From Tribonema minus (taxonomy: Eukaryota; Sar; Xanthophyceae; Tribonematales; Tribonemataceae): DNA of 64,000 nucleotides. The notes below the pieces were generated by a model. The model was not told the origin of the DNA. It was given only the letters and a program-made list of their open reading frames with translations, and searched no databases. Location of the stretch: the NCBI GenBank assembly GCA_017506865.1, contig JAFCMP010000152.1:91588-155587 (forward strand), written 5' to 3'. The first letter of the stretch is position 1, and each line of letters opens with the position of its first letter. Made by a program: the position numbers and the translations under genes. This document shows, piece after piece, positions 1 through 55,737 of the stretch.

Positions 1-3000
1 CCGTCCCCCGCGCCAAAGGCCGGCGCCGACGCCGCCGGCTCCGACATCCTCCTCACCGCGCTCATCGAGGCGTGCCCCTACATGCCGTCCACGTTCCGCG
101 ACTTTGTGCTCACGGCCGTGCGCATGGGGCCCGCGCAGCAGCCGCTCGGCGCCAAGAGCGAGGCGGCGGCGGCGGCGGCGGAGGCGTGCCACGCGAACCG
201 CGGCGCCGTCGCGGAGCGCCGCCGCGCGCTGCAGGAGCGCGTCGCGCGCGCGGAGACGCGCGGCGCCGCCGCCGCCGCGGGCACGTTCCCCGCGGCCGTG
301 GGTGAGTCGCCGCTTGCGCTTCGCTGTTGCTTTTTTGAAAATTGAAGTTGCGGAGCGCTGCTGCCGCGCGCTGCAGGAGCGCGTCGCGCGCGCGGAGACG
401 CGCGGCGCTTCCGCCGCGGGCACGTTTCCCGCGGCCGTGGGTGAGTCGTTGCTTGAACTGTGCCGCTCGAACGTGAAAATTCGCAAGCATTGTTGCGCGC
501 CGCAGGAGCGTGTCGCGCACGCGGAGACGCGCAGCGGGCACGTTCCCCGCGGCCGTGGGTGAGTCGCCGCTTGCGCTTGCTTTTGAAGTTGCCGTTTGAG
601 GTGGTGGAGCGCTGCCGTGCGCTGCAGGAGCGCGTCTCACACTCGGAAAAAGCGCAGTAGCGAAGCCACAGGTACATACCCCTGCGGCAGTGTCAGATGA
701 GGCGCCGCTGGCGCTGGTGGAGTGCCAGCGCTGCCGCCTCAAGGTTGTGCTTGCGCCGAGAACGCTTTGGGCAAGCGGCTGCTGCGGAGGAGTGGAAAGA
801 AACGTGATTTGCGGCGACCTCTGGAAGCACGGCATTGGAAGAATTGCTTGCCAGGCGACACGCGCTCACCTGCTGCACGCTGCTGCTGCGCGTTCCGCAT
901 CGCAGGCGCCGCCGGCGCGGGCGACGGCAGCGGCGCCATGACGACGCACGCGCTGTATCAGACCATGGCTGCGAACGACAGGATCAATGAGAGGCACCCC
1001 GAGGCGCTGTTCGAGGGCGCAGAGCCAAAGAAGCTCAACCGTAATGGCAGCATGGTGAGTCACACTTGAAGTTCTGCCGTATGGTGAGTCACACTTGTCG
1101 CTTTGCTGTGCAAGGGCGTGGAGCCCAAGAAGCTCAACCGCAACGGCAGCATGGTGACTCACACTTGAAGTGTTGATGTTTGAAGTGTCGCTGTTTGAGG
1201 GCGCGGAGCCCACGAAGCACAACCGAAACGGCGACATGGCGGGTCGCACTTGAAGTGTCGCTGCCGTGCCGGCTGCACAGCGTGTGAGAGCGTGGTGCGG
1301 TGCATGATAGGCCCCGCAACTGACATGTCGCTGGCATGAACAGGGCATGGAAAATTGATGGTTGAACGGCGCGCGATAGGCGGCACTTTTAGGGCCAGGG
1401 TTTGGGTCAGCGTTCACTGGGCTGCAATGAGGCACGCCGCCGCTGCCCAGCAAATCTGACAACAGGTGCGACGATTGAATCAACAGATGCGGGGGCGAGT
1501 TGCGCGGCAGGCCGCGCCAACTGCCGTTTGCTGCAAACCATCACATGGACGACGCCAGAGTGATGTCTCGCAGTGGAACGATGCCGGCAATGCTCTACGG
1601 GCGCTGCGGCGTCGTGCGTGGAGCATTGCCAGCATCCTTTCACCGGCATTGTGATTTTGCTGACTCCTAAGTAGGTACGCACCTGCCTCTGTACGTGCTG
1701 CTGGCGCTCAAGCACACCCATCGTCAGGAGCAAGCTGACCGATGCCGCATCTACACACCATCTCCCCCCCCCCACCCCCCACCCCCCCAACAGCACGAGC
1801 TCCAGCGCAAGCTCAGCAACGTGCAGGCCATCACGCGGCGCTTCGAGCAGCAGCAGGAGGAGGGCGGCAGCAGCGGCGCCAAGCCCGACGCGACGCCCGC
1901 GAGCCCCGCCACTGCCACCGCTGCGGAGCGCCCCCCCGCGTCACGTTCGGCGCTGCGACGTCATCGCCAGGCTCGCGGGGGCCGGGGCGCCCAGCGCACT
2001 CTGTCCCCGGACGAGCGACGCGCATGTTCTTCACCAGCGGCGGCATCCCCGGCGGCGGCGGCGGCGGCAGCGGCGGCAGCGGCAGCGGCAGCACCGCCGC
2101 GCCGCCGGCGGCGCCGCCGTCGCCGACGGACGAGCCGGCGCAGTCCAAGGAGGAGAAGGGGGGGTGCGCGGAGGTGCCGCCGACGCCGCCGCTGTCGCCG
2201 CTGCCGCAGCCGCCGGAGGAGGTGGCGGCGGCGGCGGCGGCGGCGGCAGCGGCGCCGCCGCCGCCCGCGCAGGAGTCCACCGCCGCTGCGGCAGCTGTGG
2301 CTGTGGCGGCAGCGCTGACGCTGCAGCAGCTGGAGTGCAGCGACGAGGGCGCGGTGGCGGCGGCGGCGGCGGCGGTGCTGCGCGGCGGGGCGTCCTCCGA
2401 GGCGGTGGCAGCGGGCGGCGGCGGCGGCGGCGGCGCACGCGGCCACTCGCGCACGTACACGCCGCTCGAGGCGTGCAGTCACAACAAGAAGTACGTGGCG
2501 AGCATGCAGAAGAGCAACAACGCGGCCAAGGCGACGCGCTCTGCGCTGTTCAGCGTGCTGCCGCCGGCGCTGTCGCCGACGATGAGCGCCGCCGCCGCCG
2601 CCGCCGCGAGCGAGAACCGCAAGTCGCTCGCGCACAACTGGCGGCAGCGGCAGGCGGGCGCGGAGGCGGCGCTGTCATCGTCGCAGGTGCGCGTCGCTGC
2701 TTGGCGCATGCAGCCGTGTTCTGAATGTATGTGTTTGAAATTAGCAGTTCCGCAGGCGCCACTGATTGGCGCATGCAGCAGGGGTCTGAACGCACGTGCT
2801 TCAATTCAGCAGTTGTGCATTCGCTTTGGGACGTGTCCATAGAATGGAGCCGATCGCTGCGCGCAACTGGCGGCGCACACAACGTGCATGCGCGGCAGCG
2901 GCGCTAGCATGGATGCCTGCGCAGGCGCCTTCGCGCGTCTGCTGCGCGATGCACTGCAAGAGCACTCAGCAGCCAGAGTTGATTTCTTCGAGTCAAGGAC

Positions 3001-6000
3001 GTGCGGCAGTGCTTCACGTAGCTTGTCGCTCACATGAGCAGCAGCGCTGTGCCTGCGCCAGCGACGGCAAGAAGCCTGCTGAAGGCTATGAAGACTCAGA
3101 GTCAGAGTCATTCATTGCGTGACTCTGAGTATCTTGAGGCGTCAAAGCCCTCTGCAATGGCCCTTACACAAGGTGTTGCAAACAGGACCATGGCGCCTCT
3201 CTCTGACGTATCTTGGTCCCCTCAATTCCCGCGTCAATGCTCCCCTTGCACGTGACATGGCAATCAGCCCATTTTCCCTCTGCACTGCCCCCCCTGCACG
3301 TAATACCGCAATGAGCTCAGTTCCCCCTGCAACGCCCCCCCCCTACACGTAGCACCGCAATGAACTCATTTCGCTCTGCAACGCCCCCCCCTGAACGTAG
3401 TACCGCAATGCGCTCAGTCCCCTCTTTAACGCCCCCCCGTGAACGTAATACCGCAATGAGCTCAATTCCCCCTGCAACGCCCCCCCTACACGTAGCACCG
3501 CAATGAACTCATTTCGCTCTGCAACGCCCCCCCCTGAACGTAGTACCGCAATGCGCTCAGTCCCCTCTCTAACGCCCCCTCCACATACACGTTATATTGC
3601 CAAACAGGACGGTGGGACGCCGGATGCGCAGCAGCACGAGCGCCACCACTCCGATGGCACGCCTCAGCAGCAGCAGGAGCAGCCCGTTTCTCTCTGCACC
3701 CCCCCCCCCTGCATGTCATACCGCAATCCCCTCAATTCCCTCTCTAACGCCCCCCCCTACACACACTTGATATTGCCAAACAGGACGATGGGACGCCGGA
3801 CGCGCAGCAGCACGAGCGCCGCCACTCGGATGGCACGCCTCAGCAGCAGTCTGACGGGGGTGACGTCAGCAACAGCGGCCGCGGCGGCACGCGCCCCGAG
3901 AGGGAGGAGGACCTGTTCTCAGAGGTACGTGCATGTATGTGTGATAATGCGGTCATGGGGGTGCGGAGCACTGTGCATGCGGCGTATGTTGGTGTTTCTA
4001 TGTACTCAGTAGGAAGTTCATATGCATACTAAAATGTACGTCATGGGTGCTGACCTGTATGCATGCAAAGTATGTAAAGTATATGTGCGTGTTCACAGTG
4101 GACCGTACCATATGTACGTGCTCACAGACGGATGCTGGCATATGCATGTTGCAGATGTGTGCGTGTATGTTCGCAAGCGTCATCAGGCGTAAACATGTAC
4201 GCATACGCTTTCTCACAGGCATCTACATGTGAAGCATGATTATGATGTACCTTGAAAGTGCCCAAGCAATGACAAGATGGGGCTTCGCACGCCAATAACG
4301 AACCACGCGGAGTCCCGTCATTCAACCTGATCACCATGTGTTCGATTGGCAGCCCGCGGCACCTGCTTCGACATCACAGTGCTGAACTTGAACAAAGCAT
4401 GTTGAACTTCAAGAATGACTCTGCCTCTCTGTGTAGCATGGCGGTACCATGCCCTGCGCCCACTCTGCCGCTTCCGTTCCGGCATTGAGCACTTTGCTTC
4501 CGCCCACCATCGCGGTGCAATGAGCAAAGTCACTTGTTTGACGCAAGAAAATCTGATATTAATGCAATCCAAAAAGCCAAACGAACTTCAGGCTGTGATG
4601 TTTGTTTCCTGTGATTTTAGATTTAGTCCAGCTCAAAGCCTCCAAGAAGTGGTGACAAACCAGAGAGCATCTGCGACTTACCAATGCTGAGCGTCAACCC
4701 TCTCTTGCGCCGCGCTGCCACTGCCGCCGCCGCAGAGGGAGATGCAGGGCCTGAAACTGCTGTTTGCGCTGATGGACTACAACGACACGCAGTACATCGA
4801 CGCCGACGCGCTGCAGCAGTACGCCGGCGAGCACGACGACTTTGCGCAGGTGACGCTCCTTCTTGAAGTGTGAAGTTCAAACTGTTTCACAGGGGCACTA
4901 CTTGCGTTGCTGTCCTCCTTGATTGCGCGGTTCAAACTGTATTGCGGGGGGGGGGCTTGTTGCATTGTTGCGCCTGCGTGCCGCGGTGGCGTGCCTGTAT
5001 GCGTGCAGGGCTCGGCGCGTCGGCCCTGCTTTGCCGTGACGTAGAATGCCAGTGCGTCGATGCCAGTGGACTGGTTAATTTACACTGGCACGTCCGTGTC
5101 TTCATGTTGCTGTGACGCCCGGCCATTGCAGGCAGTCAGACCTGCCGCGCCGCTGATGTGCAAACGCGCATCCGAACAGCGCAAGCAATCGCTCTCCGAC
5201 AACAATTTTTCTGTTGCACATAGCGGGTGCATTCTGGTTGACACGTTCATCTGTTGTCTTGCGTTATACTTCGAAGTATGAATGTACACTTTAGTGTAAT
5301 ACTACGATGCTCGAGACATGCACCGTCGCGCGCTGGACTCCCCAACTGCGTCCAGCAAGCGACTCGCACTCGCCTGACTTCGACGGTTTTGCCTGAGCAC
5401 TGCCGCTGAGCACATGATACACGAGCGCATGCGCCGTGCGACCGAGACACGACAGGCGCGTGAGGTGGAGGCGTGCATCGAGGCTAACCCTGAGTAGTGA
5501 AGTACCTGGCGATATTGTTTACATGTGATCGGCAATGCGCATTGAGACACTTCCCATTGAGCACGTGTAGACTCTGGTAGCAAGTCATGGACATTACCAT
5601 CTGGGCTTTCTCACGCCCTGAGTTTGAGAAAAAATAGTACATGCGCTGAGCACTGATACGCACGTACACGCTGTGCAGGCGCGTGAGGTGGAGGCGTGCA
5701 TCAAGACTAACCAGTAGTGAAGAACATGCGCTGAGCACTGACACACCTACACGCGCGCTACGCGACGTAGGCGCGCAAGGTGGAGGCATGCATCAAGGCT
5801 AACCCTGAGTAGTCAAGTACATGCATTGAGCACTGACACACTTACGCGCTACACAGGCGCATCGAGGCTAACCCTAAGTAGTGGCTAACCCTAAGTAGTG
5901 TAAGACATGTGCGGAGCACTGACACACTCACACGCGCGCTACGCGACACAGGCCGCGCGAGGTGGAGGCATGCATCGAGGCTAATCCTGAATAGTGAAGA

Positions 6001-6484
6001 ACATGCGCTGAGCACTGACACACTTATACGCTACACGCAGGCGCATCGAGGCTAACCTAAAATACTGGCTAACTCTAAGTAGTGTAAGACATACGCTGAG
6101 CACTGACGCACTTACACGCGCGCTAAGCGACGCAGGCGTGCGAGGTGGAGGCGGGCATCGAGGCTAATCCTGAGTAGCGAGCGACATGCGCGGAGCACTT
6201 ACACACGCTACGTGCAGGCGCCGGGGCACCTGCAATCACCGTGCTTGGCCCACTCCGCTGAGCACTGACACACTTGCGCGCGCACTACGCAGGCGCGCGA
6301 GGTGGAGGCGTGCATCGAGGCGGTGGACGTGGACGGCGACAACCGCATCGGGCTCATGGACTTCATGTGCTTTGCGCTGCGCCTCAAGAACGCGTACGAC
6401 ATCAGCCTCGCGCAGGGGCGCCAAGAGCGCCTCAACCGCGAGGTCGCGGAGAAGGTCAAGCTGCAGATGGACGGCGCGGAGTGA
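1..6484 (+). CDS. EF-hand protein gene, 3' part (5' end outside the window)
   Basis: Six exons join in phase: 1-301, 906-1054, 1794-2686, 3784-3924, 4736-4849 and 6293-6484 (stop TGA 6482-6484). The first begins inside coding sequence. Exon 3 opens with a helical stretch (HELQRKLSNVQAITRRFEQQ), then Ala/Gly/Pro-rich low complexity, then SHNKKYVASMQKSNNAAKAT. Exon 5 holds a degenerate EF-hand (FALMDYNDTQYIDADALQQY, weak at loop positions 5, 7 and 12). Exon 6 holds a near-canonical loop DVDGDNRIGLMD with Asp rather than Glu at position 12, then a Lys/Glu-rich helix to the stop. A calcium-binding or sensor role follows from the EF-hand; nothing else was recognised. Exon 3 changes frame (0 to 2) somewhere between about 1931 and 2050, as if one base were missing; a C7 run at 1931-1937 is a candidate. 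Several introns carry copies of neighbouring exon edges. Gene 2 follows on the same strand after 1.46 kb. Confidence 0.75.
302..645 (+). repeat. Donor-side exon echoes after the first exon
   Basis: The last ~80 bases of exon 1-301 and its donor are copied at about 358-440 and 497-558, with a third fragment at 607-645. The donor-like GTGAGTCG falls at 302 (used), 441 and 559, so spacing is 139 and 118 bp. Copies contain substitutions and deletions and are not needed for the reading frame. Confidence 0.8.
1055..1240 (+). repeat. Donor-side exon echoes after exon 906-1054
   Basis: The exon tail encoding EPKKLNRNGSM and the following GTGAGTCACACTTG reappear at about 1111-1170 (donor-like GTGACT at 1154) and, more degraded, at 1190-1240 (GCGGGT in place of the donor). 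A bare extra donor copy sits at 1084. The used donor is 1055. Confidence 0.8.
3250..3594 (+). repeat. 48-bp minisatellite with a three-unit higher-order pattern
   Basis: Units beginning CGCAATG start at 3307, 3356, 3404, 3452, 3499 and 3547, with a diverged unit near 3258. Units 4-6 repeat the variants of units 1-3 in order, giving a ~144-bp higher-order repeat. Each unit has a C6-C9 run followed by ACACGTA, GAACGTA or similar. Two further partial units lie at 3690-3770. The array is in the intron between exons 1794-2686 and 3784-3924. Confidence 0.85.
3597..3690 (+). repeat. Acceptor-side echo of exon 3784-3924
   Basis: The segment TTGCCAAACAG plus ~75 bases of exon start is an upstream copy of 3773-3860, with a few substitutions (for example GATGGG to GGTGGG). 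The two copies are ~177 bp apart and are separated by minisatellite units. Confidence 0.8.
5456..6292 (+). repeat. Acceptor-side echo array of the last EF-hand exon
   Basis: The acceptor and first ~24 bases of exon 6293-6484 (GCGCGCGAGGTGGAGGCGTG then CATCGAGG) recur in degenerate form at 5456, 5679, 5771, 5857, 5953, 6041 and 6136. Each copy stops after ATCGAGG or ATCAAGG and runs into CTAACCCTGAGTAGTG or a variant, where the real exon continues CGGTGGACGTGG. Each is preceded by GCTGAGCACTGACACAC. Spacing is mostly 86-96 bp, then 157 bp to the real exon. Confidence 0.85.
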
Positions 6485-20628: not shown

Positions 20629-23600
20629 TCAAGTAGTCCCCACTCGGCAATGTCGTTCGGAGGTGGCCGGCAATGCGCATTCGGACGCTTTGTCACAATG
20701 CACATGTGGATAGAGGCTGCCAGCTACCCAAAAAACATTGCGCCGTGAGAGAAATTGATGAAAAACAGCACTGCCCGCGCACACATGCAACCGCGGAGAC
20801 GACAAGAAAGCCTCCGCGCACACGCACCTGGCGCAGAAGATGACGCCGCGGCGTATCAGCTGGCTCGTGGCCTCCATCTTGCGGTACAGGGTGGGGTCGC
20901 CGACGACGCGCGCCGCGTTGCGCACCTCGCGCAGCAGCTCGTCGAGGCGTGTCACCGTGCGTACTATCGTGCCCTCCTGCACGAGCGTGATCTGGCAGAT
21001 CTGGGGGGGGGAGGGGGGGCGGGCGGGAGGGCAGCATGAGAACCCTCAGACCAGCAACCGTACGCTCAAACGAGCGCTGTGCTCAGCCGCCGCGCCGTCA
21101 CGCTCACACTTGCGCACAGTTTGTGCTGCGCCGCGCGCGTGCAGCAGCACTCGCCTCTGCGAACGACACACCACACTTCATACCCCCCTGCCAAAACACC
21201 TCGTCGAAGCAGCACAAGCACGCGCAAAACACGCCCTCTGCGCCACGCAGCGCATGCGCAGCAGCGCTCACGTCCGCAAACAGCATGCCCCACACCTGAT
21301 GCCCCCCTGCCCAAGACCCCCTCAGACACGGCAACCGCATGCTTCGCCACGCGCTGTGCTCACACGCGCGCTTTCACGCTCAAACGCGCTGCCGCCGCGC
21401 GCGTGCGCAGCAGCGCTCGCCTCTGCAAACGACACACCACACCTCATACACCCCCCCCCCCCCCGGTGCCAGACTCCTCGGCGAATCGGTGTCAGGCACT
21501 TCGTCGAAGCAGTAAAAGCGCGCTCAAAAGACGCCCTCCACGCTGCGCAGCGCACGTCGCAGCAGCGCTCACCTCCGCAAACGGCACGCCGCATTTCATG
21601 CCGGCCCCCATGCATGATGCCGCCTCAAAAAGCGACCATACTCTGTGCTCAAACCACGCAATGTCGCGCCCTGACAGGCGCGCGCATTGCGCTGCGTCGC
21701 GCACATCGCAGCAGCGCTCACCTCCGCGAACGGCACGCCGCGCGCCCAGTCGTACACCACGTCCACCAGGCCAAAGTTGAGGTTCTGCGCCGCGAAGTCG
21801 TCAGGTGAAGTTGGCAGGCCGTGCGCAGCCTGCAGCGCGCCGAGCCCGCGCGCGATGCCCTCCACGCTGGCGCGCGCCGCTTGCAGGCGCGGCGTCAGCG
21901 GCGGCTGGTTGTCGCTGCGCTCCTGGAAGACGAGCGCCGAGAGGATGCCTGGGGGGGGGGGGCAGGCGGGGGGGGGGTGTCAGCAAGGTTCCGTTTGACG
22001 CGGGGGCGATTTTTGATTTATTATGAAAAGCGTAAAAACGCGATAGAAACCATGAAGGACCTGAACAATAATAGTTTCGCTAGCTAGTGGCATGCTCGCA
22101 TCGTAAGCGTAGGCGACTGACTGCCTTGCTCGGGCCTGCGATGCTAGGGGGTTCAAAAAACGTGCGCGTCCGACCTCAACGCAATTAGCACTCAGAAGAC
22201 ATGTCTCTTGCGTAGTGGTTATACTATGTCACAGCCACATCGAGAGTGGCAGACTACAGGCTGATGCACATACATTGTCCACACTCTCAGTTCCACACAT
22301 ACAGCTATGTCAAGGGTGGCAGACCTCATGTAGAAGACGCGTGGCAGACAAGCTGAGCAGTGAGTCAGTCGCCTGCGGGCGCGGCGGCATCAGCCGATTG
22401 TTGCTGCTGCGGTGGTGCTGAAGCACCAGCGGCAGCACGATTGCGGGCACCATTCGCAGCGCGGCGCCACCGAGTCATCAGATGAGTCATACATACGGGT
22501 GTGCCCTTGGCTGCGCATCAGCGCTGTCTGAGCAGCAATTGTATCAGAACCTTGCCGCATGTGTGTAGCCGCGTGTGGAACTGCTCAGAAAAAGGCCGAG
22601 TCTGTGCCTTTCAGGAAGCAACAATAGCCCTACAATGGGGCATGTGGCAGTTACATGCTCATCGCCGTTGGGCACTTGACTGTAACGGCAGTTACACTTG
22701 CCAATGTGGACAAATAACAAAATATGTTTATCGTCCAGCAGCACACGACCGGCATCGGCCTTCTGCTGCTGCAGTCACCTCGATGTCTACCTCTGGCGGT
22801 GTACAGCAACCGTCACATGCTTGACTGTTACGGCAATTACACTTGCCAACTGACATCAACGCTCAGCCGCCCGCTCACCCGCAATCTCCGGCGGGTCGAG
22901 GTGCTGCAGCACGTTCTCAAAGACCATCTCCGTGACCACGAGCTCGTCCGCCGTGTTGACCTCGCACGCGACGCGCCCCTTGAGCTGCACCGTGTCGCCG
23001 GCGCCGTCGACGTAGCCCGCGGCGCGCAGCACGCCGAGGCGCTGCTGGAAGTCGGGGAACAGCTGGAGGCGCTCGTTGGAGGTGAGCGCGCGCACGTGCG
23101 CGATCTTGGCGCGGAGGCGTGCGCGCCTGCGTGGGGGTAGGTATGTATGGATACGGTTAGGGTTAGGGTTAGAGATGTCGGCACGCAGCTGTGGGGGAAC
23201 GCTTTAGTACTGTTGTGGCCAACTTTAAGTTCGGATTGGAGGTGAGCGCGCGCACGTGCGCGATCTTGGCGCGGAGGCGCGCGCGCCTGCGGGGGGTAGG
23301 TAGGTACGTACGCTTAGGGTTAGGGTTAGAGGTCTCGGCGCGCAGCTGTGGGGGGGTATGCTGGTACGCTTTGCAGCCAAGGTCAATCGCAAGCAATTGC
23401 ATGCACGCCGAGGCGCTGCTGAAAGTCGGGGAACAGCTGGAGGCGCTCGTTGGAGGTGAGCGCGCGCACGTGTGCGATCTTGGCGCGGAGGCGCGCGCGC
23501 CTGCGGGGGAGTAGGTATGTATGGATACGGTTAGGGTTAGGGTTGGAGATGTCGGCATGCAGCTGTGGGGGTATGTTTTAGTGCTGTTGCCAACTTTGAG

Positions 23601-32600: not shown

Positions 32601-35600
32601 CTGCCGCCGCCGCCGCCGCCGCGACCGCCGCCGCGCGCGCCGCCGCCGCTGCCGCCGCGGCCGGTGGCGTTGCCTGCTTGCCGACCGCCTTGCTGAGAGG
32701 GTGCTTTCTTGTCCTGGAGGCGGCGTGGCGAGGCGAGCGTCGGCGATGCGTGAGCTTCGGCGCAGCAGCGCTCAGGCGCTGTGAACAGTCGTGGATGATG
32801 TTTTACGGATGATGTTATACGGTCAAGCTGCCATCGGCGGAACCGTGCAGATGACGGCAGGCGTGACGGGCGTATAGCGCGCACCGCAAATTCAGCGATG
32901 GCGCAGCGTCGCCGGCGCCTCAGCCGCCCTTCCAGGCACCGCGCTTCATCAAACAGCGCCCGAACACCTGGTCATCAAACCTGCAAGAAAGAAGATTTTT
33001 TTTTTTGCCGTTCTGACGTGTGCATGCGCAACCGCTCGGACAAGTCACAGCGTGTGGTCGTAATGTACCTCCTTCGCCGCCAGCTTGGCTACCGCGGCGG
33101 CCTCACTCCCCATTCCAGGCAGCCCTATCATCAGACAGCGCCCGCAACCCACTCATTTACGTTGAAAATGAAACATTTGGAGGCATGTGTCGCGGCGTGC
33201 GCGCGCGCGTACAAACGCTCAGCGACGTCGCATACGGAGTGACGAACGGAGTGGCAAACGCACGATGAACGCGACAAACGCACGGAGTGACAGACGCACC
33301 TCCTTTGCCGCCAGCTTAGCGGCCGCTACAGCGTGGCCCTCCGCCAGGAAGTTCTTGCGGTGGTCCATGACCTGCATGGCAGCGGCGGGGGGGGCGCATG
33401 CAGGCGGGCGGCAGCGGCGGGGCGGTGGCGCGCGTGGCGTCAGTGCGGAGCGCTGCTGCTGTTGGCAGCGTCACCAGGGTATAATGGCAAGGGAGGGCCC
33501 CGCGTGTGGTGGCGCGCCCCTGTGCAATTGGCGGTGCGCACGGCGTGCTGCTGCTGCTGGCGGCGCCAACAGGGTATCACGGCGAAGCGGAGGGGCGCGT
33601 CTGTCGTGGCGCGCACCCTGCGCGATCGGCATTGCTACTCCGGCGCGGGCGCGCTCGTCAAAAGCTCGAAAGTACGTGCTTCAACTTGCTGCGGAGGAGG
33701 CGGCTGGCGCGGCGACACCGGCGCGACGCGCAGCAGCAGCAGCGCTTGATATGCGCAATTGCGGTCCGCAGCCGCCGCGCAGGCGGCGAGAGTGCAGTCA
33801 ATGTCAACGCGCGAGCAGGCGCATGGAAAGCGCCGCACTGCGCAGCTGCAGCAGTGGCGCCGCCAACGCCGGAGCGCGCAGCGGCGGCGTGCGAATGCGT
33901 GGCACCGCAGGCGGCACGCGCACGCTTCCGGGCCTGCCGACGCGCTCAACTCATCGGGTCAAATGTCCACGCCGCAAGGGGGCACAAAAAAAGCGCCGCC
34001 GCGCGCGCCGCCGCGGCCTGTGCGCGCAGAGCGATGCCGCGAGGGCCGCACCGGCCGCCACGTGCGTGTGGAGCGTCACCACTCGAACAACTGCCACTTG
34101 AAGTGGCGCGTGCACGGTGCTGAGCGCTGTGCTCTGCGCGGAGCCATGCGCCGCGCGCGCCGGGGGGCTCCGGGCGCGGCGGCATGGGCGCGCCGCGGGG
34201 CGTATGACTCAGGATGAGTGCTGCTGCGCGACGACTGTCGGAGTAGCGAGGCTCTTGTACGTCGGCTAGTGCATCAGTCGTGCAGGGTTGCGGCTGGCTG
34301 GTGTTGTGCAGTACGGGGTCACAGCGTGTTCTGCACGTCATTCTGGGCGTCCCGCTATCTTCCAGCAGCTCTCCACAGCACCATTTTTTTAAATGGTCAG
34401 GGCACGCTCTGCTTGCCCATCTTCCCTGATTCACTGCTTGCTCTCAGCAGCGTAACTCTCTGCGGACTTTGCTCACTAAGAAGCCACATCATACTCCACA
34501 TGTTAAACAACGGCGGTGGAGCCGCTGCGACCGTTCAACTTCAAGCAGCAGCGCCAGACTGGCGAGCGCCAACTGGTGAGGAGCATTATGAAGTGGATGG
34601 TTTGCAGCCCGGGTCTGCCTACGACAGCAGGCATGACCCTGGAGGTAGGAATCCGATTTTCCGTGCATGGGACGGCTGGTATGAGACATTGAAACAATGA
34701 ACATGAGCTCCTTTGCAATTTATGACTATGAATTCACTGCAGTTCATGGAACAACACAATGGTGGGGCGGCTTCAAGGCGGCAGCTTATCCTTCAGGAGA
34801 GCTGTGAGCACTGTCACATCTCGTCGGCTGGCCTCAACAAGACTTCGCCGCTCACAGTGAGCAAGTGAGCTTAGCAAAAACGATTGTGAGATGCTAGAAT
34901 AGCAAAGAAAAGAGTTCCAAAAATGTGAAGTGTTGCGACTCCTCGGTTGCCAGACATAAAACACGCAACACCTGAGAAACACAGCAACAATGTGAAAAGG
35001 AACTTCAACAGTGACGCACCTTGTGCATCTCGCCGCCGGCGTAGATGAAGTGCTGGAGCGGCACGGGGCGGTAGTCCGTGGTGATGACGTGCACGGGCTG
35101 CGCGCAGCAGCAATGCTCAGCAGCAGGGCGAGCGTCAGTGCTCCGCATTGGACAGGTATATCTGCACATGCCGCATGGACAGCCTGGCGCAGCACCGTGT
35201 GACGAGCACACGTGTGGTTGTCAGTATGCCGCGTGTGCACCGTACTTGCAGAACAACTCACTTACATAGCCTGTTGCTGCAAGTACACCAATATCAAGGC
35301 GACCAATGCAACGGAAGACCGATGCCAGTCGCGTGCTGCAAGCAGTGAATATATGATTGCACTGCGACACCAGCACTACAAAATACCGTCTCGTCTTCAT
35401 TAAAATGCAGTTAAAACTGCATGAGACTGCCTGCTTTTCTCTTCCTGCTTTGACGGATGCGTAGTGTTGCGCTGTTGAAGTTCAACAGCGCTTTGTGCGG
35501 GTGACGCACCTTCTTCTTCGTCCGCCCTATCCAGTCGGAGAACTCAATGGTGTTGGGCGTCGTCGCCGAGAGGAAGATCATGCCGGCGTGCTCGGGCAGC

Positions 35601-38600
35601 ATGATGATTACTTCCTCCCACACCACGCCGCGCTCCGTATCATTAATGTAGTGGACCTGAGCAATGAGGCAGCAGCTAATAAATTGAGATAAATGTGTGT
35701 GGCATACTGGCGGCGGCGTCGTTTTTAAAGCATGCTCAGAATGCTTAAGAGAAGATCGTGCCGGCGTGCTCGGGCAGCATGATGATTATTTCCTCCCACA
35801 CCACGCCGCGCTCCGTGTCGTTGATGTAGTGCACCTGAGAGATGAGGCAGTCAATCACGATGTGATGCTGGATGTGTACACCCTAAAACCTAACTCTGAC
35901 CCAAAGCGCGCACACACACATATACACAATGTATGGAGTACGTGTCCACATTTCTGGAAGTATGAAGTACTTCGTGGAGTTCACCTACAGCAGTGAAGAT
36001 GGGCTCACTTTTTGTACTGCAAGCTAGATTGCCCCCAAGTGGTATACACGCACTGGTTAGCATGCTGAGTTACAGCCTACCCACTCAATGTCGCGCGAAA
36101 TGTCGGCGGTGCAATACACAAGGGAGTGCAGGATCTCAACGGTCATCATCACGCACGACGCCTTCAGGCTGCAAAGTAAATACTTCCAGGTGTTCATCAA
36201 AGTTATCTGAACGCCATACTTGTGTACATGCTTGCTTCAGACTGCCTCGTCAAATACGCGTCTGGGCTTAGAAGTGTGTATACATGCATACCTCGTCAAA
36301 GATGACCCACTCAATGTCGCGCATAATGTCGGCGCTGCAGTACAGCATGGAGCGCAGGATCTCTGTGGTCATCGATGATGAGGCATGATGCCTCCGGAAT
36401 GCGAATTACGCAGAAGTATACGTATACGTGTGTCGATTATCTCGCTATCACATATCCGAACACATGTATAATTCAAGTACCGCGTAAAAGACGCGCTCCG
36501 GGTTGCACGTAATGTACACATACCTACCTCAGCTATTTGATTGCACATGCTTTGAAGTACTTGATTGAAGAGTTGATGACCTGCGTACCTCATCGAAGAT
36601 GACCCACTCAATGTCGCGCACAATGTCGGCGCCGCGGTACAGCATAGAGCGCAGGATCTCTGTGGTCATGATGAGGCACGACGCCTCCGGGTTGATAGAG
36701 ACGTCGCCGGTGATGAGGCCCACGTCGTCACCAAACCGCTTCTGCAGCATGAGAGTTGAAGTATGAAATGAGTTGAACTTTGATCAAACACGCCGGGTCT
36801 GTCGCCGAGCTGCTTCTGCAGCAGCGAGCAGCACAAAGAGGTGCAGGTTTAAGTTCTCATGGTGAGTCATACGTGAAGTTCACCTTGAAGTCGCGGAACT
36901 TATGGTTGGACAGCGCTTGGGGGCGACGTGTCGATGGCGCGCGTAATGTGCATGCCTGCTGCATCCGCATCAAGTACGCGCGTCACACACTTAAAGTGAA
37001 TAATGAAGTCACGGTACTTCTGGCTGGACAGTGCCTTGATGGGCGACGTGTGGATGGCGCGTGTCCACACACATATGTGAGCCACACTCTATGTAAGTTC
37101 TCACAGTGAGTCACACTTGAAGTTCACCTTGAAGTCGCGGTACTTCTGGTTGGACAGCGCCTTGATGGGCGACGTGTAGATGGCGCGCGTCATGTGCGCG
37201 GCGGCTGCATTCACATCAATTCTGAAGTACGTGAGTCACACTTGAAGTTCACCTTGAAGTCGCGGTACTTCTGGTTGGACAGCGCCTTGATGGGCGACGC
37301 GTAGATGGCGCGCGTCATGTGCGCGGCGGCGAGCGCGATGGCGCACTCCGCCACGACCTTACTTCATGTTTGAAGTTTACCCTACTTCAAGTTTGAAGCC
37401 TACCTTGAAGTCGCGGTACTTCTGGTTGGACAGCGCCTTGATGGGCGACGTGTAGATGGCGCGCGTCATGTGCGCGGCGGCGAGCGCGATGGCGTACTCC
37501 GCCACGACCGTCTTGCCCGCGCTAGTGTGCGCCGCGACAAAGACGCACTCGCGCCGCTCTAGGCGCGCCACCGCCTGCTTCTGGAAGGCATCGAGCTCAA
37601 AGGGGTACTCAATGGCGGGGTTCGGAACGAGCGACCTGAAAGGGGGGGTGGGGGGTGAGGCAGATGAGGGTTGGTGAAGATTTGAAATGCGCTGATGATG
37701 AGCAAGGTGACATGTGCTAACCTAGCAATGAGCAACGGGGGCGCATATTTCATGCAAAACATGGACGTGCTGCAGGGACACGTCCAGCAACGCCGTCACC
37801 GTCCACGACTCCCGTAAAGACCACGCTGCCGCCACCACACCTACGTGCACTAAAAAACCCTACACTTACATATTTGCAGCATGAACCAACCATACCTGAA
37901 GGCTGACACACATCCACTCACTATACCTACATACATACCTGAAGTCGGAGACGTCGAGCGACGCCGTCACCGCCCACGACTCCCGCGCCTCCGCGCGCCC
38001 CGCCCCCAGCAGGTGCGCCATCATCGCGCGGTGCTGCAGCGCCCCCGCCCCCCCGCCCCCCCCCGCCGCCGCGGGGGCGCCCAGCAGCATGTCGAGCACT
38101 GCCTCCTCGTCCCCCTCCCCCCCCTGCCCCCCTTCTCCCCCGAGCGCCGCGGGCACGCGCAGCTTCGCATTAAGCGCGGCTAGCGCGTCGGTGGCATCCG
38201 CTGCCGGCGCCAGTTCCTGCTGCTGCTGCCGCACTTGCGACGATGGCTCCGCGGTCTGTTGGACGGTGTCTGCCGCCTCGGCTGCATCGGACTGAGCGCT
38301 GTCCTCGCCGCTCGTGTAGCCGCCCTCGCTGTCGCTGCTGCTGTCGCCGCCGCGGAAGATGGCGGCGAGGTCGATGGTGGCGCCTGCGCGCGGTGCGTTG
38401 CAGCGCGGCGGCAGTGATGATCGGTCAGCGGCACTGGTGATTTGAGGGGGTGGGGGAGGGCAGCGCGCCTGTGGACGCACACAATACTTGATGTGGGTAT
38501 TCATGGGGTGGTAGTCGGGTGGGCGGGGCAGGGGGGGGGGCTCAGCAGTCCATGATGCGCATGGGTTAGTGTGGCAGGGGGGTGGGGGGAGGGGGCGGGT

Positions 38601-41288: not shown

Positions 41289-44200
41289 ATGCCGCAGCGC
41301 CCGGAAGGCGAGCGCATCTTTTCTGCAGTGCGCGCGGGGCGAATTAACGCGGTCGAGCGCTGGATCAATGACGGTGGTGATGTCAATGGCACGGACGAGA
41401 ACGGCTGGTGAGTAGCAGCCCTGAAAATCATGTCGTCAGGGGTTTTCGGCAGCTGTTGTCGTTGAGGCCCTTTGACCAAGGCATATGCTGCCGCCGACAG
41501 CGGTGAATCATTCTATCGTGCTCATGTTGGTGCATGAATGCAGTCCGCGCCGGACCCATTGGTTAGTTAGTTGCTATTGTGCCTGTTTCAGGACGAGACA
41601 CGACCAGTGATCATGCTGCTGCTGCCGTTGCTGCTCTGCACTTGACTTCGTCTACTTGCAGGTCGCCGCTGCACATCTGCTGTGAGGCGGGAAACTACGA
41701 GCTGGCAGAGCTTCTGCTAGAGAACAGTGCGCAGGTACGTCAGCCATGCACATTTTTTCCAACCGCCGCAACATATGATATACGACAGCAACAGCCCGCC
41801 AAACCACAAAGCAGCCAATGTCAGGACTGCGGCTATTCAAATTAGCTGGAGGTCACTCACATCCTGCAGCGGCTCTTCTGATGGTGTCGTTTACGGTGGC
41901 CGCCCAAGCGCGCGCGCATCAACTGCTGTGCTGTGCTGCCTGCTGCGAGGGAATCCGAGTTTGCCAACGGCATGGCTCTCCTGTCAAGACATGCATTCTG
42001 ACCGTCGCTTTTGCACATGTGTTTTACAGGTTAATACAAGGGGTGGGCTGTCCAAGTGGTCCCCTCTGCACCTGCCGCTTACCGGAACAGGTGGAAGGTG
42101 GTTGAGCTGCTGTTGGACTCTGGGGCCACGTGCGACGTGCGGGGAGCGTTTGCGAGGACGCCACTGCACTGTGCAGCCTTCAACGGTGAGTATGCTCTGT
42201 AATCCGGTGTTGGAGGAGCAGTCTGTGGCCTTGTGCAGCAACCAGGTGGTCACTTTTTGCTGTTTCCTATCAAGCACTTGATGCAGATCAGCCGTTTCAT
42301 GCTGAGCAGCTTCTATGCAGCGGCAGCTACTCGCGCAGTGCACGAGTCTCCGTTGGCAGCGCTTTCAATGTCGTGCGTTGGCGCTCCAGTGCGCAGCACG
42401 GCACGCGATCGGTCATGACGGTCATGATGCCGCTGTACAGTCGCGGCACGGGCCCACAGGTGCACCACACAGCCTGACACGAATGAAATGCGCTTCACCA
42501 CCGGCAAGTGACACGCTACAGGCAGAAATTTTCATGGCATGGCTGTTGGCATGTCTGCAGCGCACAGCAGCGCTTATCTCACCGCCATCGCCGTCCTTAC
42601 GGGCTTACACCCAATGTAACCGCCGCTGTGCCGCCGCCGCCGCTGCAGGCGCGGTCCAGACGGTGAGGATGCTGCTGGACGATGGCGCGGACCCGCTGGC
42701 GCGCGACGCTGCGGGGCGCTGCCCTGCTGACACGGTGGAGGACGCGCTGATACTGGACGCGCAGCGCGAGGTGCGTGTGTTGCTGAGCGATGTGACACAT
42801 GGACGAATCAAAAGATCGACGCACTGATACTGGACGCGCAGCGCGAGGTGCGTGTTGCTGAGCGCTGTGACACATGGAAACGAGTTGTGACACATGGAAA
42901 CGAATCAAAAGATTGTGGAGCTATATCTATGTGACAAGGTGCGGTTAGCCGCAAATGCCTTCCACCGATAACCGTGGTCGCCGCTGCTGCAGCATTCGGC
43001 CATGAGTCAAACAGTGCCACCAATGGACCACCATATCCGCAGGAGCCGAAAGACTTCTGTGTGCAACACATATTGCTCAACGGCCGCCCCGCTGCCGCGC
43101 GTGCGCAAGTGCGGCGGGGCCACGCGCGAATGCCGTGAAGACACAAGATGGTTGCCGTGTGCAGCACTCACGATGCTCTGATAAGTCACAACTGCAGTCA
43201 TTGGGCCGTGTGCAGTACTTCAAGTTGAAGTAGCATGGGCGCGCGCTTGCACGCTGGAGAAGCCAACATACGGGTGCGGTGTTTCACGCCACCGGTGCTC
43301 TGCATGTATCCTCGCTGCCATTGGCGCTGACAGAAGTGTGGTGTGGCACGTCAGGCACTATGCAAATTTGCCTGGGTTGATGCTCTCAATCGCGACGTGC
43401 AGCGGCAGCGAGGCGGCTCTGATGCGTCTCAGGGCCTCAGTGTGCGTGAGCAGTAGCCAGCGCGCGCACGCCCGTCGACGTACTCAGCGTGCATTGCGTT
43501 GTTCCCGCTGACACGACGCACGACCGCCTGAAGGAACCCGCTGCGAGTGGGATGTGCACCTCAACCACCTTGAGCTCAGTGCCAAGCACCTGCGTATATA
43601 TCTGCTGTAACTGCAATTTGCCTGCACATGCCCATTTGCCATGGCAGGCTGGTGGGGCGACTGAAAAGGCATTGAAGCCATATTTCGAAGACGTCGGCGC
43701 GCTTTTCTCACCATCGGGGGTGTCGACAGCAGCACTGCTCAGTGCCGCGTACACGCTTCGCAAAAGCGCATTTCCTGCCCCTCGCGTATACCTACATATT
43801 CACCGCGGTCCCTTCGTCGCTGCGCGCCGCCGCAGGAGATACTGGCGCTGCTGCGCGATGCCGCAGCGCGGCCGCGCCACCACATCGGCAGCACGCAGCA
43901 GCACGAGCCGCAGCGCCAGGGGACGCCGCAGCAGAAGCCGCTGCTGTACTTCCAGCACCAGCAGCACCAGCAGCAGCAGTGTTCAGCTACCCCCTGGTCC
44001 AAGCCCCAAGCGGCGGTCCCCCCCCTGGGCGCTGCAGCCCCCTCCATCATCCCCCTCTCCCCTCACCGCATTGACGTGCGCGCCGGCGACGGCAGCAGCA
44101 GCAGTGGCGGCGGCAGCAGCGCTCCGCGCTTTGAGCTCAGCAGCAGCGGCAGTGGCGGTGGCGGCAGTGCTCCTGCGGCGCTTGAGGGCGGATGGAATGG

Positions 44201-51037: not shown

Positions 51038-51298
51038 GATGGCACCACCCCCACCGACCTACTAGTAGCTGGTTTTGCTAGAAAGGCTTCAGAGTAAGCC
51101 TACAGGAAGGCCAGGAAGCCCAGCAGTGCGGCGTAACACTGGCATACCGTGTCTTCATGCTGATCAATACAGCGCGCCGCGCCTTTATTGCCACGCAAAG
51201 GCTAGGCACGTCCAACTCAACTTGGCGTTACCTGTTCTCGGGAATACCGTTCCCGGGAAAATCTTGCAAAGTTGAAGTTCTTGGATTTGCAAAAGAAA
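51038..51298. promoter_or_regulatory. Compact divergent promoter region
   Basis: The CFAP97-like gene starts at 51037 (minus) and the methyltransferase-like gene at about 51299 (plus), leaving 261 bp for two promoters. It contains the palindrome-like CGGGAATACCGTTCCCG and AAGTTGAAGTTC near the plus start. No TATA element was assigned. Confidence 0.45.
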
Positions 51299-54200
51299 AA
51301 GATGATGCTCGTAAGCTGCCGATGCTATTTCGGCGGTGGGCCGCGGGTATGCAGAAGTCTAAAGAATGAGTTCAGGAAGCGATGTCTGACACCCTGCTGC
51401 CTCACCAGAGCCAAATCTACTCTAAGAATCGCACCAACTTCCAGACCGCCAAGAGCCCAGCATTCGGTTCTCCTGGCTATTGCAGGACTTTGTGCGACAG
51501 GACTCTTCTTGAAACAACAGCCAGCTCAGGCGTTCTGGCCGTTCACAAGCAGGTGATGACTCATGTACAACTGCAGATGGCAACTGTCAGGTAGAAGATG
51601 TGTGCAAGAAGGGGGTTCACACACACGCCTTTCACGGATGACTGCCTCACATGTTGCAGCACCGCCCAACGTCCCAACTCTCTGCAATATATATATGGTT
51701 TTTGTTGTCGTGCTCATGTAGTGCCATCTCATCCGATGGCACTGGCCTCTCTCAGGAAGCCCGCCTCGCCCTTCGAGTACCCGGAACTCAGGCGAGGTAT
51801 CAAGCGGCGCAATGCGGCGGAGACGGAGTTGCGGCTATACATGGAAGGCATGCGCAGCACGGTGCAAGACCTGGTGCAGCAGTTGCAGACAAGCAAGGTG
51901 CAGTTGCAGACAAGCAAGGTGCTCACGTCTGAAACTGACAACAGCCTGCTCACATGGCGTGCTGTCGTGAGCCAGCGCTTCTGAGGGGGATGGTGCTGCG
52001 TCGCTGAGCTGTCCCTGCGTTGACAGGTACGCAGCTGTTGACAGCAGTCGTAGCAGTAGAAGCAGCTGCACGAGGTGCCGTTGAAGCACGCCTCATTCCT
52101 CAGAGCAGACTCCGCGCCTTCTCGCGTATGGAGCACATCCCCTCAGCTGCAGCGGATGGCTCACTTTACGCGCACACGCCCACCTGTCATGCTGGCTATT
52201 GTTGTTTGAGAGCAAGTTCCATGCGCATGCCTTCATTTACCCGTCCGCATCCTGATCCCGCCTCGGGCGCAGCGCGCAGGCACACACCGAGACCTGGTGC
52301 TGTACAGTATGTATTGAGATTATCGTCTTTGTGGGTGCCGGCAAGGCTGCAGCAACGCGGCGCTGTGCACTGTATTAAGAATTCAATGCTGAGTCACGGA
52401 TGCCTGGGCGTGCAGCGCCCCCCTTCATTCAACTGTTGAACTTCAACAGCAGACCCCCCAAAGGCACATTAATCCATGAAATGTACATTTCCACACCTGG
52501 TAAACAATTGAGTACATGGGCGCATGTGTGCTGGCTGCCGTGCAGAATGTTCGCGTCGCCACCGACGCGCACATGCGGGCGCTGCACGCGGAATCCACTG
52601 CCACCTGTACACTTCAAAGTGCATGATATGTTCGCCAACTTCACTTTTCATGTGGCGAACACTGTGCCTTCCCCTCAACGGACCGCCATCTACATGTAAC
52701 GCGCACGCGCAACGTGCCGCCGCGCAGATCGACCGCGCGCCGCCTTCGACGCGCGCATGCGCGCGCTGCGCGCTGAGTCCGCGGTCATGTTTGGTGGCGT
52801 CATGTGCTTTCCCTTTGTGCGCTGAACAGTATTGTCGCCGCTCAATAGACAGTTACATACATGGCCGCATGTGCGGTGGCTGCCTGCCGCGCAGATCGAC
52901 CGTGCCGCCTTCAATGCGCGCGCTGCGCGCGGAGTCCGCCGACTTGTGTACACCATGAAGTGCACTGTGATGTGTGTACATACCTTGTACTTTTCGTGCA
53001 GCAAACACTCGTCACTTCCCTTGAACCCGCCGCCGCGCAGATCGACCGCGCTGCCTTCGACGCGCGCATGCGCGCGCTGCGCGCGGAGTCCGCCGCCGCG
53101 ACGCAGCGCATCGCGTACGGCGTGACGGACGACGGCGCGCGCGCGCGCTACGAGCGCGACTTTGGCTGCGCGCGCTGGACCGAGGCAGCGCTCGCCGCCG
53201 CCGCCGCCTACTCGCCGCTCATCGAGGCAAGCAACGCGCCGAACATCTTGACGCTGTACTTGGAATAGTATTCAGCAGAGCTGTGCTTTGTCGCTGAGTC
53301 GCCCAGAGCGGCAGCAGCAGCTGCGCCGTTTAACGGCTGTCGAGCCTACTCGCCGCTCATCGAGGCAAGTGCTTGCGCCACAAGGGTTTAGTGTTGAAGT
53401 TGGAGTAGGGTCGAGCAGCGCTGTGCTTTTCGCTTGCTCTGTGGGAGCAGCAGAGGGTTCTTTTCGGTTCAGCGTCAAGCCATCGCAACAATACGCGTGT
53501 CATTTGCTTCCTGTAATAAGCTCGGTAGCAGAGCAGCAGCCGCGGCGGCAGCAGCAGTGGGGTGTTGTTATCTCTGAGTGCTGGCCCGCGCATTACGGCC
53601 GCATAATGTCAACACTTTATTGACAGACACAGGCAGGGCTTGACGCCACCGCCACGCATGTCTGTTGTGAGGCAAGTGATGTGTCTTACAGGGCACGAAT
53701 CTCGTTTGCGAAGAGGCCGTTGTGGGTGGGTGTCACAGGGTTTGTAGAGTGAAGGCTAGGTTTAGGGTTCGGGTTCGGGTTAGCAGCAGCACCTTCACCA
53801 CCATCAGCAGCAAGTGTCGTCACTTTACCACTTGGTGCATCTAGCTTGACTGCCACGTGCGTCGTGCCGAAACAGAACCACGTAAGGAATAACAGCACCC
53901 AGCATCACTGCAACGCATGCCGATGTACTGCCAGGTTGTGCACATCGTCCGCATGCACTGCCATTGAGTTGCGGTCATTGCCAGCTTGAAGTTCACATCG
54001 TCACTTTCAGGTGCACTCTGCCGGTCGCGATGCAGCAGGGCAGGCTGCTGTAGTGCAGATAGTCAATGTAATCAACATGCGATGCGCGCTTTGGCGTGCG
54101 CAACGTAAGCGATAAACATGCATCACCCTTACTCCTGACCCCTATACCTAGTCCCAACCCTAACCCAACCCTCAGCTAACATCCTAGTCGGCGCTCGTCT

Positions 54201-55737
54201 CGCATACTTCGCGATGCCTTAAACGTCACAGGGCGCAATACCACACTCTCGGCACAATGGCGGGGCTGAGAGTCAAACGCAACAATGCAAGCTGCCCGAC
54301 ACACCATCTCACGCGCTTCCCAACGCATTCCTGCTCACACAGTGTGGCGCAGAGCCATTTGGGAGGGGGGCGGGGTGTCAAACAGTCATTGACTGGTGCA
54401 AATACAACCTCTTTGCGGATACGTTTCTGCTAAGCGCGCTTGTGGGACCATCAAGTGTGAATGCTTACTGCGCAGATTGGTGCGGGGACGCGGCCACTTA
54501 TCCTAACCCTAACCCTAACCTAGCCCTCAGCTCACGCTCCCTACCGTCTGCGCATGTCTCACGTACTTCACACCTTTCGCAGGGCACACTCTCGGCACAA
54601 CACAGGCCCCAAAATGCCAGGCACACCATCTCACGCACTTCCCAATGCGTTCCTGCTCACATACATGGGCGCGGCACGTGGTCACTGGCAGCGGGCGCTG
54701 TCGCGCGCAGGCGCACCCCTCATGTTGATCCTCAACTCCAGCTCTCACTTTCAATTAACACTCAGCCCCCGCTTTCTGAGTTGGCGCATGTCTCACATAC
54801 TTTGCGATGCCATCGGCGTCACGGGGCGCAACCTCACGCTCCTGTCACCGTGCCATGCCCGAACTCTTCAGCAGCGAAAAACCAACGCAACAATGCGAGC
54901 TGCCAGACACCATAGCACGCGCTTCCTGCTGCATTCCTGTCCACGCAGATCGGCGCAAGGCCAATTTGGGGGGGGGGGGGGGGGGGGGGGTGGATAGCAA
55001 CCGCCACAAATGAAAACGAATCAAAAGATCGAAGACAATATCGCCTCTCTGCCAATGCATTCCTGCTCACGCGCTTGCGGGACCACCACGTGTGAACGCT
55101 TGCTGCGCAGATTGGCGCGGGGCGCGGTCATTGGCAGCGAGCGCTGTCACGCGCAGGCGCGGACGTCCTCGCCTTTGACAACGGCTCCTCTCCGCAGCCG
55201 CTCGCCGCGCTGCCGCCCGTCGGCAAGGTCGCCCCCGGCGATGAGTCAGCGCTCAGCAAGGTGTCAAACGATGCTAATAATGCGTTCCTGACTGCCACGT
55301 TCGCGTGGTTGTCGTGCGCGGTTGTGTGAAGCGTGTGTGAATTCAGGCTGCGTCTTCGTACGGCGTGGCGGCTGTCGTGCTGTGCGCACCATAGCAGCAA
55401 ACCCGAGTGCGCCATCTGGTACCGGGGGATACACGGCCGCTGCTGCCGCTGTGCGCTCCGCGGCGCAGCACCCCGACCGCACGCTGCCGCTGGTATGCCG
55501 CATGGCGGTACTGCGCGCGCGATCCACGCACTTGAAGTAGATCAACTTCAACTCTGTGCTCGCCCGGAATGCCCCTATGCGCAAAGCCTGATGCCCATCT
55601 AGCAACACAATCTCTTGCTGAAATGAGCACATGCCAGCAAACCTGAGTGCACAACATGACAACAACCCCGAGTATGCCATCTGCTAACGGGGACGCACGG
55701 CCTCTGCTGCCGCTGCTGCTGCTGCTGCCGCCGCTGC

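What the first reader, a model, noticed from the sequence alone, without database searches (positions are those of the whole stretch)
302..55525. Introns carry serial 'echoes' of their flanking exon edges and splice sites
In four genes on both strands, at least fifteen exon edges are followed or preceded by 1-7 truncated copies of the exon end plus its own splice site (examples: 302-645, 5456-6292, 21154-21721, 30590-31925, 36884-37403, 52546-53040, 54339-55110). Copies usually decay with distance from the used site. Units mix exon and intron sequence, so they are junction duplications, not whole-exon duplications. Seen directly: the copies and their order. Inference: introns grow by repeated tandem duplication across exon-intron junctions, and splicing keeps using the copy joined to the intact exon. 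I do not know a named system that matches this.
Basis: partly seen in the sequence, partly recalled or inferred. Interest (0 to 1): 0.88.

Follow-up and report, generated by a model that had tools for sequence, protein, structure and literature searches.

The report
Serial exon-edge duplications lengthen introns
In this unnamed eukaryote, short stretches spanning an exon end and its splice site have been copied again and again into the neighbouring intron, where the copies decay like non-coding DNA and make the intron longer; in the introns examined, such repeats sit at exon edges far more often than random placement would give.

Summary
In 42 modelled introns, 31 of 84 splice sites have a direct copy of their own 150-nt junction in the same intron above every null; inverted copies 0 of 84. 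Elsewhere in the genome, 21 of 74 edges of exon-sized Pfam hits have copies, against 3 of 46 hit edges in long open frames. Repeat families gather at exon edges: 25 of 30 with score 20 or more, 8.3 expected by random placement; all families 26 of 36, 9.8 expected. Exon/echo differences at codon positions 1, 2, 3 are 6.6, 6.6, 14.2%, as expected for a constrained exon and a neutral copy. Three of the youngest repeats are exact head-to-tail duplications of 90-101 bp with 0-1 bp overlap. Best reading: repeated small tandem duplications across splice junctions, tolerated because the outer splice site is still used, then neutral decay. Single events of this kind are known (potato RdRp); ten paper searches listed no serial, edge-biased form. 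Why junctions are hot is open. No RNA was available; one gene of the window (10 introns) has none.

The parts
208..660 (+). Gene 1: exon end with donor at 302 and three donor-side echoes
   Evidence: scores 82.9, 66.9, 47.6 against null maximum 33.4; sequence
1005..1267 (+). Gene 1: donor at 1055 and two echoes
   Evidence: 53.0 and 45.3 against null maximum 18.3
2681..2830 (+). Gene 1: donor at 2687, weak donor-side copies, largely intronic
   Evidence: 26.6 and 25.9 against 24.4; counted as internal (starts 5 nt into the intron)
3580..3849 (+). Gene 1: acceptor before 3784 and one echo
   Evidence: 92.5 against 27.0
5453..6321 (+). Gene 1: acceptor before 6293 with an array of echoes, some of them copies of copies (184-bp period)
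   Evidence: five copies, 48.7 to 36.8 against 26.8; period
20830..37635 (-). Ski2-type RNA helicase gene, exons A-F and G-J (A 37635-37404, B 36741-36589, C 35656-35510, D0 35097-35020, D1 33371-33300, D 32713-32321, E 31449-31213, F 30107-29820, G 25254-25136, H 23126-22879, I 21948-21722, J from 21000)
   Evidence: exons between F and G not modelled
37776..37985 (-). Exon upstream of A: donor at 37942/37941 and one echo
   Evidence: 31.8 against 21.0
36850..37510 (-). Exon A donor side: four echoes
36078..36694 (-). Exon B donor side: two echoes
35510..35846 (-). Exon C acceptor side: one echo
31980..32393 (-). Exon D donor side: two echoes
31376..31962 (-). Exon E acceptor side: three echoes
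30707..31314 (-). Exon E donor side: three echoes, copies 1 and 3 related to each other
30035..30264 (-). Exon F acceptor side: one echo
29510..29907 (-). Exon F donor side: echo
   Evidence: 48.6 against 24.9
25229..25461 (-). Exon G acceptor side: echo
   Evidence: 51.5 against 19.6
22880..24194 (-). Exon H acceptor side: four echoes
21043..21746 (-). Exon I donor side: four short echoes, copies 2 and 4 related to each other
42740..42900 (+). Ankyrin-type gene: donor at 42771 and one echo
   Evidence: 50.8 against 24.6
52501..53097 (+). Methyltransferase-like gene: acceptor before 53041 and echoes
   Evidence: 58.8 against 28.7
53152..53453 (+). Same gene: GC donor at 53227 and one echo
   Evidence: 30.8 against 21.0
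54147..55160 (+). Same gene: acceptor before 55111 and echoes
   Evidence: 47.0 and 37.6 against 22.5

Best explanation
These are serial small tandem duplications at the DNA level. A segment, mostly 25-250 bp, that spans a working splice junction is duplicated head to tail. On the donor side the first splice site stays joined to the intact exon, on the acceptor side the last one does, so the mRNA is unchanged and the extra copy is buried in the intron. The copy then drifts neutrally while the exon is held by selection. Further events often start again from the exon, so older copies lie farther out, most clearly on the donor side, and the intron lengthens. Shown by computation: the copies, their direct orientation, the exon-edge bias, the coding/non-coding pattern of decay, and, for the two arrays searched, that they are local. 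Inferred: that the outer sites are the spliced ones, and that the events come from break repair of the kind described for small tandem duplications (staggered nicks, fill-in, end joining with little microhomology). Not explained: why splice junctions of many but not all genes are hot.
For: 31 of 84 junctions have a direct copy above every null, 0 of 84 an inverted one. 25 of 30 families with score 20 or more are exon-anchored against 8.3 expected, P 2.6e-11 (odds doubled 7e-7, fourfold 1e-3, whole array span 1e-3); all families 26 of 36, P 2e-9 (doubled 3e-5, fourfold 0.02, whole span 0.006). Kinesin introns alone: 8 of 9, P 4e-4, doubled odds 0.009; all families 8 of 11, P 0.002 and 0.04. Codon-position differences 35/532, 35/529, 76/535 in Ski2. 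Head-to-tail repeats with 0-1 bp overlap in L072/L060, L025 and L035. Arrays make up much of the affected introns, which are longer. Two arrays have no dispersed copies.
Against: Ten of 36 families are internal, 18 before merging. Of the near-identical repeats, L025, L072 and L011 could not be placed at a known junction, and L011 (99% identical) is 16 bp short of head-to-tail. The SWI3-like gene has none in 10 introns. Several echoes share only a few intron bases with the present junction (exon E acceptor, 3-4 nt), so later changes must be assumed. Decay with distance fails on the acceptor side in 3 of 5 arrays. No RNA, no relatives.
Confidence: 0.72

Rival explanations
1. Ordinary random stutter: small tandem duplications fall anywhere, and junction-spanning ones are only easier to see because the exon copy does not decay.
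For: Internal families exist (10 of 36); three of the near-identical repeats are not placed at a junction; some copies are copies of copies.
Against: The bias survives doubled and fourfold odds for visibility and, at score 20 or more, doubled odds in kinesin introns; four intergenic pieces (6.7 kb) have no family; copies share fewer derived changes than a model that duplicates any unit of the array (P 0.05; 0.003-0.04, where the exon-only model fits two of three age settings and is itself strained, P 0.011, in the third).
Confidence: 0.17
2. Functional splice-site arrays: echoes are kept as decoys, enhancers or alternative sites.
For: Most copies still have a plausible site: AG 15 of 16, GT 14 of 20 with GC in four of the other six.
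Against: Retention does not differ from what overall divergence predicts (P 0.14 and 0.13); differences at codon positions fit a neutral copy; in Ski2 the ten acceptor extensions meet a stop or break the frame, and stops follow five used donors within 9-123 nt.
Confidence: 0.07
3. Introner-like or other mobile insertions, or reverse-transcribed gene pieces.
For: Introners can fill genes of algae (PMC9860276, passages).
Against: The two arrays searched match only their own locus plus one short diverged piece each on another contig; copies keep intron sequence next to the exon end and the same orientation.
Confidence: 0.02
4. Assembly artefact.
For: None found; reads were not available.
Against: Many copies differ from the exon by several per cent to 28%, with indels and truncations, and similar cases occur on many contigs.
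Confidence: 0.02

Closest known systems
Tandem genomic duplication crossing an intron-exon boundary, potato RdRp gene (PMC4974935; passages and results section)
   Same: A tandem duplication that spans an intron-exon boundary and carries the splice site with it.
   Different: One event that created a new intron and extra exon sequence; here many events, serial, with the copies buried in an existing intron.
Tandem-duplication model of intron gain (Rogers 1989, as told in PMC3443670 and PMC4974935)
   Same: Duplication of exon sequence next to splice signals.
   Different: The model duplicates an exonic AGGT segment to make a new intron; here copies hold exon end, splice site and intron sequence that already existed.
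Small tandem duplications from 3'-overhang breaks, Pol alpha-primase fill-in and end joining (PMC8355091; abstract and passages)
   Same: Short head-to-tail duplications; the youngest cases here have 0-1 bp overlap.
   Different: Described in mammalian cells at induced breaks, with no link to splice junctions.
Direct repeats at intron borders (Rogers and Bendich 2025, PMC11782384; abstract and first part of discussion)
   Same: Direct repeats near splice sites.
   Different: 4-30 bp repeats pairing the 5' with the 3' border, read as insertion scars; here longer copies of one border lie inside the intron.
Introners (PMC9860276; start of abstract and passages)
   Same: A source of intron sequence, also found in algae.
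   Different: Dispersed mobile elements; the two arrays searched here are local.

Membership tests
Small tandem duplication | Copies in direct orientation | tested here: met
   direct 31 of 84, inverted 0 of 84
Small tandem duplication | Copies adjacent, head to tail | tested here: met
   exact in L072/L060, L025, L035; most older pairs have a spacer or truncation, so met for the youngest only
Intron gain by exonic tandem duplication (Rogers model) | Duplicated segment is exonic and supplies both splice sites of a new intron | tested here: not met
   37 of 40 copies extend across an existing splice site
Intron gain by exonic tandem duplication (Rogers model) | Intron absent in relatives | not testable with these tools
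   no related genome is held
Introner | Similar copies in many genes | tested here: not met
   two arrays only
Introner | Terminal inverted repeats or target-site duplications | not tested
   -
Whole-exon duplication | Copy holds the whole exon with both splice sites | tested here: not met
   Ski2 copies cover one end of the exon
Minisatellite-type array | Copies turn over among themselves | tested here: inconclusive
   5 of 108 differences shared at codon positions 1+2 in Ski2, but copies of copies in Ski2 E-F, I-J and gene 1 intron 5
Functional splice-site decoy | Splice dinucleotides kept better than the rest | tested here: inconclusive
   AG 15 of 16, GT 14 of 20; P 0.14 and 0.13

The most novel reading that the evidence does not exclude
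Duplication is coupled to splicing itself. Echo copies carry nearly the same DNA as the junction, yet new copies arise mainly from the junction in use, and coding edges that are not spliced rarely have them (1 of 25 against 31 of 84, a rough control). What marks the site would then be its use: a co-transcriptional event such as pausing, an R-loop or spliceosome-linked nicking that leaves staggered breaks at working splice sites. Introns would grow because they are spliced.
Probability: 0.2. Interest if true: 0.9.

Novelty: new variant of a known kind. Interest (0 to 1): 0.66.

Why it matters
Where the sequence of long introns comes from is usually answered with transposons or left open. Here more than half of the length of the affected introns lies in repeat arrays tied to the neighbouring exon edge, with a built-in clock: the exon is a preserved master and each copy a neutral relic of it. 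That makes rate, order and cause of intron growth measurable within one genome, and makes a specific idea, duplication coupled to splice-site use, testable. Gene predictors that meet many near-identical splice sites could also be misled.

Tried and rejected
Self-BLAST per intron gave a stronger edge bias (25 edge to 1 internal in 42 introns) but missed close tandem copies, so it was replaced by a scan of all diagonals (28 edge, 18 internal before merging; one search merged internal pieces that lie in an edge array at a matching offset). The control (16 of 67 with a match in another locus) compared paralogous loci and is not usable; one search replaced it. In one search two of the three positives among 'long frames' (L048, L052) may be true exon edges; L052 had a frame of only 149 aa when I re-read it. 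Links of echoes with G/C runs or telomere repeats were not significant (9 of 22 v 4 of 20, P 0.19; 7 of 22 v 2 of 20, P 0.13). A nucleosome-sized unit is not supported: offsets of the 129 families are broad (127 of 129 below 250, mode 100-124; some loci overlap, so a few families are counted twice). Selection on echo splice sites: no signal. The totals fed to (41 shared of 405) were added up by hand; the simulations rest on assumed age distributions. In one search, of 22 loci one had no stop in reach and two with frames under 300 aa (L052, a strong hit, and L063) were left out afterwards to give 1 of 19; many of these frames may be mobile genes, and some stops may lie in introns. Names of genes other than Ski2 and kinesin come from my reading of the frames, not from a family search. 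L078 was fetched but used only. The organism could not be named: among the 120 listed relatives of Ski2 the best are about 64% identical over two thirds of the query, the named ones among the top being oomycetes and diatoms.

Full report
WHAT IS THERE. The window lies in an unnamed eukaryote assembly of 158.2 Mb in 554 contigs; the window has 61% G+C. Exons A-F, separated by GT-AG introns, join to one open frame of 533 codons, and G-J to another; the protein matches Ski2 helicases in the database. Further introns were modelled in gene 1, a SWI3-like gene, an ankyrin-type gene and a methyltransferase-like gene of the window and in seven kinesin genes elsewhere, placed by Pfam matches. Together 42 introns, 35,697 bp.

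CHECK AGAINST CHANCE. For each of 84 splice sites the junction (100 exon + 50 intron nt) was aligned to the rest of its own intron and compared with introns of other genes and block-shuffled versions of its own intron. 21 of 44 and 10 of 40 exceed every null; 16 of the 44 score 40 or more. With the intron reverse-complemented 0 of 84 pass. The scan of all diagonals found no segment at its threshold in one shuffled version of each intron. Outside the window, edges of exon-sized Pfam hits (open frame up to 300 aa) for helicase and kinesin have copies in 21 of 74 cases, hit edges in longer frames in 3 of 46 (Fisher P 0.004).

EDGE BIAS. The diagonal scan gives 36 repeat families after merging: 26 include exon sequence (13 donor, 13 acceptor) and 10 are internal; at score 20 or more, 25 and 5. 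If units were dropped at random into these introns, 8.3 of the 30 would touch an exon (P 2.6e-11), or 9.8 of all 36 (P 2e-9). Exon-anchored copies stay visible longer because the exon drifts less; doubling their odds leaves P 7e-7 (all families 3e-5), fourfold odds 1e-3 (all 0.02). Using the whole span of each array instead of its unit leaves 1e-3 (all 0.006). The window was chosen because a reader saw echoes. The kinesin introns, placed by Pfam matches, give 8 of 9 against 2.9 (P 4e-4, doubled odds 0.009), or 8 of 11 (P 0.002, doubled odds 0.04); one of those genes (L075) had shown an echo before I fetched it.

ANATOMY AND DECAY. 37 of the 40 copies have the splice dinucleotide inside the alignment. 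Among the 36 of these that score 25 or more, AG is intact in 15 of 16 and GT in 14 of 20, with GC in four of the other six; neither differs from what the overall divergence predicts. Against Ski2 exons, copies differ at 35 of 532 first, 35 of 529 second and 76 of 535 third codon positions (P 1e-6). A doubled rate at third positions is expected if the copy changes everywhere at about 7% and the exon adds only silent changes. The nearest copy is more similar than the farthest in 10 of 13 arrays: 8 of 8 on the donor side, 2 of 5 on the acceptor side.

DESCENT OF COPIES. Pairs of copies in Ski2 arrays share 5 of 108 differences from the exon at positions 1+2, so most seem to descend from the exon separately. 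A model in which any unit of the array is equally likely to be duplicated predicts more sharing, but the rejection is moderate: P 0.05 on Ski2 alone, 0.003-0.04 on 14 arrays depending on the assumed ages. The exon-only model fits two of the three age settings and is strained in the third (P 0.011). Ski2 E-F copies 1 and 3, I-J copies 2 and 4, and copies 1-3 of gene 1 intron 5 look like copies of copies.

HOW IT ARISES. Of the 40 highest-scoring families shown, three independent ones are exact head-to-tail repeats of 101, 93 and 90 bp with 0, 1 and 1 bp of overlap (L072 = L060, L025, L035; 97-100% identical); a fourth near-identical one (L011) is 16 bp short of head to tail. In L035 the repeat lies in the intron next to the helicase exon and includes the start of an existing echo; the other three could not be placed at a known junction. 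Across 268 kb of gene-centred loci there are 129 families, 127 with offsets below 250 bp; four intergenic pieces of the window (6.7 kb) have none. Small duplications with little microhomology resemble those described for breaks with 3' overhangs that are filled in by Pol alpha-primase and joined (PMC8355091, abstract and passages). That this pathway acts here is inference.

EFFECT. 22 of 42 introns have edge families. In these, repeat arrays span 11,727 of 21,464 bp and the introns are longer (median 893 v 646.5 bp, P 0.023). Genes differ: SWI3-like 0 of 10 introns, all others 22 of 32 (P 1e-4). Gene ends look different from splice edges: 0 of 6 starts and stops in the window and 1 of 19 stop-codon ends of long frames, against 31 of 84 (P 0.0009). 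This control is rough, and two loci were left out of it after the fact.

COMPARISON. The potato RdRp gene holds one tandem duplication across an intron-exon boundary that made a new intron (PMC4974935, passages and results section). A review lists tandem genomic duplication and break repair among proposed ways to gain introns (PMC3443670, passages). Rogers and Bendich report 4-30 bp direct repeats at intron borders (PMC11782384, abstract and first part of the discussion). Introners are dispersed elements (PMC9860276, passages); the two echo arrays that I searched are local apart from one short diverged match each. An intron-rich chlorarachniophyte genome paper shows no such arrays in the passages I saw (PMC12730881). 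Gao and Lynch 2009 is not held. Ten paper searches listed nothing that describes serial, decaying, edge-anchored arrays across many genes; the library lacks most subscription papers.

VERDICT. A real, non-random form of small tandem duplication at splice junctions, seen in several genes of the window and on many other contigs, neutral by the tests that I could make, and a source of intron length. The event type is known; the serial exon-edge form is a new variant. The cause of the hotspot is open, and the possibility that splicing use itself marks the site is the part most worth testing.

Noticed in passing
42 modelled introns (window and L071-L077): The words TTGAAGTT/AACTTCAA are over-represented in the window and lie near donors: 12 of 30 within 100 nt of a donor, where 11.8% of intron sequence lies (P 8e-5). 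Function unknown.
   Followed up: partly
window 15709-15733, 24335-24371, 29364-29418, 56092-56155: Short TTAGGG/CCCTAA telomere-like arrays inside genes, mostly in introns.
   Followed up: partly
window 31463-31490 and near other acceptors: Long C tracts (G on the plus strand) just upstream of acceptors of the Ski2 gene, such as exons E, I and J, perhaps serving as polypyrimidine tracts.
   Followed up: no
window 3235-3579: A 48-bp minisatellite inside gene 1 intron 3, the strongest internal repeat family.
   Followed up: no
window 53227: A likely GC-AG intron whose echo also starts with GC.
   Followed up: no
L079 (G000:C334:714136-714324): A RuBisCO large-subunit fragment in a nuclear contig, perhaps a plastid-derived insertion; it reads to me like the red-type form (recalled), which would fit a red-plastid alga.
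   Followed up: partly
window 58815-58999 and 59556-60210: An open frame region with ten 18-bp repeats and a diverged internal duplication of about 300 bp; not identified.
   Followed up: no
window 8000-19000: A SWI3-like gene (my reading) whose ten modelled introns have no exon-edge family, unlike its neighbours.
   Followed up: partly
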